Below are positions 18,282 through 18,793 of a stretch of 64,000 bases of DNA, piece by piece. Numbering within the stretch: the stretch's first letter is position 1; each line of letters opens with the position of its first letter. The translations under genes were made by a program, and so were the position numbers. The notes beneath the pieces were generated by a model. It made no database searches. It was given only the letters and a program-made list of their open reading frames with translations, and had not been told where the DNA came from. This DNA comes from Kondoa malvinella (Eukaryota; Basidiomycota; Agaricostilbomycetes; Agaricostilbales; Kondoaceae), in assembly GCA_039545315.1 (NCBI GenBank), contig BCIM01000001.1:358805-422804 (forward strand), written 5' to 3'.

Positions 18282-18377
18282 AAACGTGGGACTCCATACT
18301 TTTTTCTTTTTCTGTCAATAATACAAAACCATTTTTATATACGCATTGCTGCTGAATCGCACCTAATTGGCTTTTTG

Positions 18378-18388
18378 GTCTAGAAGTA
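18378..18388 (+). promoter_or_regulatory. Internal Pol III A-box region of tRNA-Pro
   Basis: The sequence TGGTCTAGAAG, starting at about 18376, fits the A-box consensus TRGYNNARNNG. It lies in the D-arm of the tRNA as expected for an internal Pol III promoter. Confidence 0.7.
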
Positions 18389-18404
18389 TGATTCGCCCTT
18401 CGGG

Positions 18405-18436
18405 TTTTGCATCCCGCCAGTCTGTGCTGGTTAAAT
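18405..18436 (+). other. Canonical-position intron (37/38) of tRNA-Pro
   Basis: A 32-base insertion directly after G37, the standard site of eukaryotic nuclear tRNA introns. It contains CCCG (18413-18416), complementary to the CGGG of the anticodon loop, and a small hairpin with CCAG against CTGG arms. Both are usual for tRNA introns cut by the splicing endonuclease. Confidence 0.75.
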
Positions 18437-18452
18437 TGGGCGAGGTCCAGGG

Positions 18453-18502
18453 GTTTGTCGAGCTCGTCGTGCTTTTGGCCCTAGGCTGACGATACCTACC
18501 AG
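18453..18502 (+). other. Ectopic intron-like insertion in the T arm of tRNA-Pro
   Basis: A 50-base insertion between T stem and T loop (positions 53/54). Deleting it restores CAGGG-TTCAATT-CCCTG exactly. The boundary can shift by one base because G occurs at both ends. Internally TCGTC pairs with GACGA. Its last bases, CCAG, precede TTCAATTCC and give a near-consensus B-box across the junction. I could not confirm a bulge-helix-bulge splicing motif by eye. Confidence 0.65.
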
Positions 18503-18511
18503 TTCAATTCC
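18501..18511 (+). promoter_or_regulatory. Internal Pol III B-box of tRNA-Pro
   Basis: AGTTCAATTCC resembles the B-box GGTTCRANNCC. Its first two bases come from the end of the insertion and the rest from the T loop and stem, so promoter strength may not depend on removing the insertion. Confidence 0.6.
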
Positions 18512-18528
18512 CTGAAAGGCCCGCAAAC

Positions 18529-18533
18529 TTTTT
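18529..18533 (+). terminator. Pol III terminator (T5)
   Basis: Five T residues start seven bases after the discriminator base of the proline tRNA. This is the usual spacing and form of a Pol III terminator and supports an expressed gene. Confidence 0.7.
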
Positions 18534-18793
18534 GCACCCTGAGCCGTTCCACTTTGCGTGCAGACGAGACCCAACGCCTGGGCAGGCACCTTGAGATCTC
18601 TTCGAAGGCAGTCTCGATGCATGCTACGGTCATCATAGGGTCCTGACTTGCTTTGCGGCATGTGCGCCCGGTCAAGCTTAGAGATGCTGCTCAGAATGAG
18701 GGAAGAACACAACGGGAGAGAAGTAGAAGTAGGCAACCAGGGAGCAAATGCAGTTTGTCAAAAGCGGATACTTTTCCCAAATCCTCAAAAGTC

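What the first reader, a model, noticed from the sequence alone, without database searches (positions are those of the whole stretch)
18369..18522. Proline tRNA gene with a second, T-arm insertion besides the normal anticodon intron
Seen: acceptor 7/7, anticodon stem 5/5 and T stem 5/5 pair only if 18405-18436 and 18453-18502 are removed. The remaining 72 bases match the length and layout of yeast tRNA-Pro, with TTCAATT loop, A-box and T5 terminator. Known: eukaryotic nuclear tRNA introns normally sit at 37/38; ectopic introns are known from archaea and red algae. I know of no fungal T-arm intron, but cannot search. Inference: a spliced ectopic intron, or a recent insertion that made a pseudogene.
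Basis: partly seen in the sequence, partly recalled or inferred. Interest (0 to 1): 0.88.

Follow-up and report, generated by a model that had tools for sequence, protein, structure and literature searches.

The report
Messenger-type introns inside tRNA genes
In this fungus, related to Mixia, the T-arm insertion in a proline tRNA gene looks like an ordinary mRNA (spliceosomal) intron, and at least 15 other tRNA genes of the same genome carry similar inserts, including the only tryptophan tRNA gene found, so making proteins here may depend on the spliceosome cutting tRNAs.

Summary
The first insert is a normal 37/38 tRNA intron. The second is not of the archaeal/Sen kind: it reads GTTTGT...CTGAC...CAG, 50 nt, like this fungus's mRNA introns. 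In the whole genome (19.1 Mb, nearest named relative Mixia osmundae) I recognised 45 tRNA genes; 16 carry 17 inserts away from 37/38, all 47-55 nt, in the D arm, anticodon arm, variable region or T arm; 16 are GT-AG, one GA-AG. G at +5 occurs in 17/17 and CTRAY in 12/17, against 25.5% and 14.1% of random GT..AG segments. At seven inserts GT-AG is the sole best of all scored deletions under a motif-blind cloverleaf score, and an uninterrupted Asn paralogue gives exactly GTAAGT...AAG. Bulge-helix-bulge pairing is at chance. Direct searches found no second Pro(CGG) or Trp(CCA) gene. Best reading: spliceosomal introns in Pol III tRNA genes, some genes needing both splicing systems. Ten open-access text searches listed no such report. 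No RNA evidence was available; that is the decisive gap.

The parts
18369..18522 (+). tRNA-Pro(CGG) gene with two introns; 72-base mature body = 18369-18404 + 18437-18452 + 18503-18522
   Evidence: cloverleaf complete only after both removals
18405..18436 (+). canonical 32-nt tRNA intron after base 37 (TTTTGC...TTAAAT, not GT-AG)
   Evidence: ARAGORN parse; 3 of 4 central-helix pairs and the base-32 anticodon-intron pair present
18453..18502 (+). 50-nt GT-AG, spliceosomal-type intron between bases 53 and 54 (T stem/T loop)
   Evidence: sole best deletion; motifs and length as in coding introns
18453..18458 (+). 5' splice site GTTTGT
   Evidence: G at +5 as in 17 of 17 tRNA inserts and 20 of 22 coding introns; one actin intron starts with the same GTTTGT
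18486..18490 (+). branch-point motif CTGAC, A 13 nt before the intron end
   Evidence: 13 of the 14 coding introns with CTRAY have it 10-14 nt from the end
18500..18502 (+). 3' splice site CAG
   Evidence: C at -3 in 11 of 17 inserts
18336..18341 (+). TATATA upstream (-33 to -28)
   Evidence: TATAW at -50..-13 in 5 of 16 interrupted and 14 of 28 other tRNA genes examined, 2.9% of random 60-mers
18529..18535 (+). Pol III terminator TTTTTGC
   Evidence: B box followed by TTTTGC has 92 genome matches (not all tRNAs) against 32 for the reversed pattern

Best explanation
18453-18502 is a major-class (U2-type, GT-AG) spliceosomal intron inside a Pol III tRNA-Pro(CGG) gene, one of at least 17 such introns in 16 tRNA genes of this genome. 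The primary transcript carries two introns of different kinds. I infer that the spliceosome removes the GT-AG intron by 5' site recognition, branching at the CTGAC adenosine and joining at CAG; this restores the T arm, after which the Sen endonuclease and tRNA ligase remove the 37/38 intron, for which they need a folded tRNA body. Shown: sequence, exact excisability, splice motifs, lengths, recurrence, absence of BHB pairing, no second Pro(CGG) or Trp copy found. Inferred: transcription, removal by the spliceosome, and the order of the two reactions.
For: Motif-blind deletion test: the sole best deletion is GT-AG at 7 of 17 inserts; background share of GT-AG among deletions 0.75% on average, binomial P about 2e-11, or 1e-9 at the highest background. 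An eighth sole best is the GA-AG of Ala(AGC). At 5 more the GT-AG cut ties for best. G at +5 in 8 of 8 of these sole-best inserts. Free of any tRNA model: aligning the uninterrupted Asn(GTT) gene L001 to L064 puts the large gap at GTAAGT...ATGAAG in all four top-scoring alignments of 26,800 tried (68 of 74 identical). All inserts: +5 G 17/17 (background 25.5%, P 8e-11), CTRAY 12/17 (14.1%, P 2e-7), +5G+CTRAY+YAG together 11/17 (2.5%, P 3e-14); 22 coding introns by protein alignment: 20, 14 and 12 of 22. Lengths 47-55, median 50; coding 45-58, median 48. BHB central-helix pairs 24 of 68 at inserts (about chance, no insert with 4 of 4) against 32 of 52 at 13 canonical introns of the same genes. 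Pro(CGG) and Trp(CCA): single locus each.
Against: No RNA data: neither transcription nor splicing is shown. At 4 inserts another deletion scores better: GlyUCC 2, Trp 1, GlyCCC 2 (and 25 ties), LeuCAA 16. Ala(AGC) is GA-AG. 5 of 17 lack CTRAY; 3 of 17 lack YAG. One mismatched stem pair outside the D arm remains in Trp, LeuCAA and Met, two in Ala. Some isotypes rest on my layout parse: after intron removal ARAGORN names Asp L061 Phe, LeuCAA L069 SeC, and gives LeuUAA L062 no isotype. Interrupted genes and, where the cut is ambiguous, their splice sites were recognised by eye with GT-AG in mind, so the all-insert motif P values are optimistic and 16 of 45 is not an unbiased rate. The Rfam search scored only 63 of 531 candidates, so intact copies may have been missed. 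The U6 gene found is uninterrupted, so the Pol III precedent recalled from other fungi is absent here. Inserts are slightly longer than coding introns (Mann-Whitney P 0.058).
Confidence: 0.86

Rival explanations
1. Ectopic archaeal-type introns: a relaxed tRNA splicing endonuclease cuts bulge-helix-bulge sites at non-canonical positions, as in Crenarchaeota and Cyanidioschyzon.
For: Ectopic positions overlap those known in archaea, including 53/54, 45/46 and 25/26 (PMC4090602, passages). The same genes carry ordinary 37/38 introns, so the enzyme is presumably present.
Against: Central-helix pairs 24 of 68, about chance, none with 4 of 4; 13 canonical introns of the same genes 32 of 52. GT-AG, +5G, branch motif and 47-55 nt length would need a separate explanation. 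The BHB test covers one register and +/-1 only, and central helix only.
Confidence: 0.06
2. Pseudogenes: mobile or spliceosomal introns landed in tRNA genes and killed them; other intact genes do the work.
For: One Asn(GTT) gene has an uninterrupted copy (L001). The tRNA inventory is incomplete, so intact genes may have been missed.
Against: No second copy of Trp(CCA) or Pro(CGG) by direct search, and no uninterrupted copy of Cys, Asp or the others except Asn in the capped tRNA family search, which favours uninterrupted genes; these others were not searched one by one. Stems and loops stay intact or nearly so around the inserts.
Confidence: 0.04
3. Spliceosomal removal happens only on occasional Pol II read-through transcripts or is otherwise a minor route, and the inserted genes contribute little tRNA.
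For: Spliceosomes usually act on Pol II transcripts (general knowledge).
Against: The window gene keeps a T-run terminator and a TATA box, and TATAW is enriched upstream of tRNA genes here; U6 of some fungi is recalled as a Pol III transcript with an mRNA-type intron.
Confidence: 0.04

Closest known systems
mRNA-type introns in U6 snRNA genes of fission yeast and of Rhodosporidium/Rhodotorula (recalled; no call)
   Same: Short GT-AG introns with a branch point in a Pol III transcript, one case in the same fungal subphylum
   Different: U6 is part of the spliceosome; here the hosts are many tRNA genes, and the U6 gene found in this genome is uninterrupted
Ectopic BHB introns of archaeal tRNAs and Cyanidioschyzon merolae (PMC4090602, PMC3978253, passages)
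   Same: Introns away from 37/38, in archaea including 53/54 and 45/46, sometimes several per gene
   Different: Those depend on BHB motifs and the tRNA endonuclease; here no BHB pairing but GT-AG, +5G and a branch motif
Non-canonical nucleomorph tRNA introns of Guillardia theta (PMC4090602, PMC3978253, passages)
   Same: Eukaryotic; D, anticodon and T arms; many lack a defined BHB; removal shown by RT-PCR, mechanism unknown
   Different: 3-24 nt there, 47-55 nt here; no spliceosomal signature is mentioned in the passages seen
Spliceosomal introns in nuclear rRNA genes of lichen fungi (recalled; no call)
   Same: Spliceosomal introns in a non-Pol II structural RNA gene
   Different: Pol I transcript, not tRNA
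Canonical 37/38 tRNA introns
   Same: Present in 15 of the 16 interrupted genes
   Different: Fixed position, 4-33 nt, no GT-AG ends among those parsed

Membership tests
U2-type spliceosomal intron | GT...AG ends | tested here: met
   window insert yes; 16 of 17 inserts, one GA-AG
U2-type spliceosomal intron | host's extended 5' site (+5 G) | tested here: met
   17 of 17 inserts; 20 of 22 coding introns
U2-type spliceosomal intron | branch-point motif upstream of the 3' site | tested here: met
   window CTGAC 13 nt from the end; CTRAY in 12 of 17 inserts, 14 of 22 coding introns
U2-type spliceosomal intron | length within the host's intron range | tested here: met
   50 nt; inserts 47-55, coding 45-58
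U2-type spliceosomal intron | removed as a lariat by the spliceosome | not testable with these tools
   needs RNA
Archaeal/eukaryal BHB tRNA intron | bulge-helix-bulge at the joints | tested here: not met
   window 0, 1 and 1 of 4 central pairs in three registers; all inserts 24 of 68 in the main register
Archaeal/eukaryal BHB tRNA intron | position 37/38 (eukaryotic nuclear) | tested here: not met
   53/54
Functional nuclear tRNA gene | cloverleaf with conserved bases after intron removal | tested here: met
Functional nuclear tRNA gene | Pol III terminator and promoter elements | tested here: met
   TTTTTGC, TATATA; AG|TTCAATTCC keeps most of a B box
Functional nuclear tRNA gene | transcribed and matured | not testable with these tools
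   needs RNA
Group I or II self-splicing intron | match to a catalytic intron family | tested here: not met
   Rfam search of 18300-18600 at E up to 10 lists one unrelated lncRNA only; 50 nt is too short (general knowledge)

The most novel reading that the evidence does not exclude
A fungus whose translation depends on the spliceosome at the tRNA level: GT-AG introns have spread through its Pol III tRNA genes, essential single-copy tRNAs (Trp, probably Cys, Asp and others) need spliceosomal splicing, and individual pre-tRNAs need two unrelated splicing machines in sequence.
Probability: 0.75. Interest if true: 0.97.

Novelty: new variant of a known kind. Interest (0 to 1): 0.93.

Why it matters
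Nuclear tRNA splicing and mRNA splicing are taught as separate systems with separate machines. Here the mRNA machine would be needed to make tRNAs, from Pol III transcripts, in tightly folding RNAs and, in Pro(UGG), around an internal exon of only 23 nt. It would tie spliceosome activity directly to translation, show that intron gain is not confined to Pol II genes, and explain why ordinary tRNA finders miss such genes: ARAGORN found none in this window, and the capped Rfam search found 30 in the genome at E<=0.001.

Tried and rejected
Codon-usage ORF joining for coding introns gave one doubtful intron; one search showed why (weak codon signal) and protein-to-genome alignment replaced it. From one 30-nt Raptor gap was dropped (likely alignment noise), and two extra gaps seen only with permease P0127 were not used; that aligner assumes GT/GC-AG, so coding +1/+2 and 3' AG are not independent findings. 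ARAGORN alone as deletion score was too loose for D-arm and variable-region inserts: there the GT-AG cut was often not first (e.g. rank 42 at Trp, 34 at GlyUCC), because it accepts odd loops; a fixed-layout score replaced it. In one search the GlyCCC start was wrong; redone (2 better, 25 ties), but still uses the background for it.

Introner (mobile intron) origin: the inserts share mostly exact matches of 8-11 nt with each other or with coding introns, some around the branch motif, plus two imperfect ones of 12 and 16 nt; no family seen.

Loci fetched but rejected as tRNAs: L063, L065, L066, L070, L072, L073, L074, L078, L080, L082, L083, L085-L088, L090-L095, and of L031-L060 all but L031 (this gene), L032 and L035 (= L024). 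Of the pattern matches I fetched only those whose 3' end looked like a T arm by eye. A search in plasmids gave nothing. The U6 gene found has no intron.

Full report
WHAT IS THERE. The window comes from a 19,088,850-base, 20-contig genome. The Raptor/KOG1 protein of the window is 51% identical to that of Mixia osmundae, the closest named relative among the 120 hits listed of 4,075 (unnamed proteins reach 99, 70 and 53%), so this is a Mixia-like basidiomycete fungus. The finding is correct to the base: 18369-18404 + 18437-18452 + 18503-18522 is a 72-base tRNA-Pro(CGG). 18405-18436 is an ordinary 37/38 intron. 18453-18502, between bases 53 and 54, is the extra insert. Its ends are GTTTGT and CTACCAG, with the A of CTGAC 13 nt before the end.

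IT IS NOT ALONE. The Rfam tRNA family gave 30 genes at E<=0.001, with 63 of 531 candidates scored; ARAGORN with introns calls a tRNA in 29 of the 30. Weaker Rfam hits, an A-box pattern and B-box-plus-T-run patterns, followed by small fetched stretches, added this gene and 14 more, 45 in all; further patterns added none. One of the 15, Lys(UUU) L084, is my reading of a locus that ARAGORN names Asp. Sixteen of the 45 have inserts outside 37/38, 17 inserts in total: Pro(CGG) 53/54; Pro(UGG) 27/28 and 45/46; Gly(UCC) 51/52; Thr(CGU) 32/33; Asp(GUC) 53/54; Leu(UAA) 25/26; Asn(GUU) 51/52; Trp(CCA) 25/26; Gly(CCC), Ile(UAU) and Arg(UCU) in the D loop after base 15; Leu(CAA) 32/33; Arg(UCG) 52/53; Ala(AGC) 57/58; Cys(GCA) 13/14; Met(CAU) 48/49. 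Fifteen of these sixteen genes also have a 37/38 intron, so Pro(UGG) needs three removals.

ARE THE CUTS REAL? I deleted every stretch of 30-120 nt inside each gene and scored the rest as a cloverleaf without looking at splice motifs (GlyCCC redone; each Pro(UGG) insert tested with the other one removed). At 7 of 17 inserts the single best deletion is GT-AG: Pro(CGG), Pro(UGG) first, Asp, Leu(UAA), Asn, Arg(UCG), Met. At Ala(AGC) it is GA-AG. At 5 the GT-AG cut is among tied best (Pro(UGG) second, Thr, Ile, Cys, Arg(UCU)). At 4 something scores better (Gly(UCC) 2, Trp 1, Gly(CCC) 2, Leu(CAA) 16 products). GT-AG makes up 0.75% of scored deletions on average, so seven sole bests of 17 has P about 2e-11. 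A check free of any tRNA model: the uninterrupted Asn gene L001 aligned to L064 puts the 51-nt gap at GTAAGT...ATGAAG in all four top-scoring alignments.

WHAT KIND OF INTRON? I derived 22 coding introns of this genome by aligning actin, Raptor and permease proteins to DNA (GT/GC-AG was assumed there). They are 45-58 nt, with G at +5 in 20 of 22 and CTRAY in 14 of 22. The tRNA inserts are 47-55 nt, with G at +5 in 17 of 17 and CTRAY in 12 of 17. Among 6,963 GT..AG stretches of 45-58 nt in the window the values are 25.5% and 14.1%. Because ambiguous cuts were chosen with GT-AG in mind, the cleaner figure is +5 G in 8 of 8 inserts whose cut was fixed by structure alone. The bulge-helix-bulge expected for the tRNA endonuclease is missing: 24 of 68 central pairs at the inserts, against 32 of 52 at the 13 scorable canonical introns of the same genes. 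Base 32 pairs with the third-last intron base in 10 of 15 canonical introns. So one gene carries two kinds of intron with two kinds of signal.

ARE THE GENES USED? Direct searches with the spliced sequence found no second copy of Pro(CGG) or Trp(CCA). Uninterrupted copies of the others, except Asn, were not listed by the capped family search; they were not searched one by one. TATAW lies at -50..-13 in 5 of 16 interrupted genes and 14 of 28 others (L084 not examined), against 2.9% at random. Outside the D arm stems are complete, or have one mismatch (Trp, Leu(CAA), Met) or two (Ala). A genome whose only Trp gene is dead would not be viable.

MECHANISM. Likely: Pol III transcribes the whole gene, perhaps helped by the upstream TATA; introns at 53/54 end in AG and so leave AGTTCAATTCC, close to a B box. 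The spliceosome removes the GT-AG intron; the folded body then serves the Sen endonuclease at 37/38. The order is inferred from the endonuclease's need for a folded tRNA body (general knowledge). Transcription of genes whose boxes are broken more deeply (Ala 57/58, Cys 13/14) is unexplained.

COMPARISON. The reviews I looked at (passages only: PMC4090602, PMC3978253) describe ectopic eukaryotic tRNA introns in red algae and nucleomorphs, tied to BHB motifs or of unknown mechanism; the stem 'spliceosom' does not occur in the main text of the first and occurs once in the second, about protein genes. tRNAscan-SE 2.0 (PMC8450103, 12 of 18 passages) looks for noncanonical introns in archaea. The passages seen of PMC11782384, PMC12730881, PMC4494063 and PMC9548191 say nothing of spliceosomal introns in nuclear tRNA genes. 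Ten text searches listed no title or abstract that reports it; some lists were cut (20 of 266 papers, 15 of 1,378, 20 of 33), and subscription papers and most preprints are not covered. mRNA-type introns in fungal U6 and rRNA genes are recalled, not looked up.

VERDICT. An unreported setting, as far as I could search, for a known intron type: strong sequence evidence, no RNA evidence. I call it a new variant of a known kind because the intron type is known; spliceosome-dependent nuclear tRNA maturation would itself be a first to my knowledge.

Noticed in passing
L077 (G000 C3:1147990-1148280): The Ala(AGC) insert is GA-AG instead of GT-AG, yet its removal is the sole best deletion; either a non-canonical donor that works or a recently damaged gene.
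   Followed up: partly
G000 C5:932028-958801: Nested inverted order of tRNA genes: Gly(-), Glu(-), Glu(+), Gly(+); similar inverted pairs of Phe on C13 (119662/135899) and of Thr and Lys on C2. It recalls the tRNAs flanking fission yeast centromeres (recalled comparison).
   Followed up: no
L063, L078, L082: GC-rich hairpin elements with repeated parts, ending in a B-box-like sequence (GGCGGTTCGAAACCGCC or GCCGGTTCGAGCCCGGC), not tRNAs, possibly SINE-like.
   Followed up: no
window 18529-18535 and many tRNA loci: T-run terminators are often followed by GC: TTTTTGC recurs after many of the tRNA genes (B box plus TTTTGC: 92 matches against 32 for the reversed pattern; not counted gene by gene).
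   Followed up: partly
G000 C14:428362-428477: The single U6 gene found has no intron, unlike some related fungi (recalled).
   Followed up: yes
whole genome G000: No initiator Met, Tyr, His, Val(AAC/UAC), Ile(AAU), Glu(UUC) or Gln(UUG) gene is among the 45 recognised; no dedicated search was made for them, and they may be interrupted in ways these searches miss.
   Followed up: no
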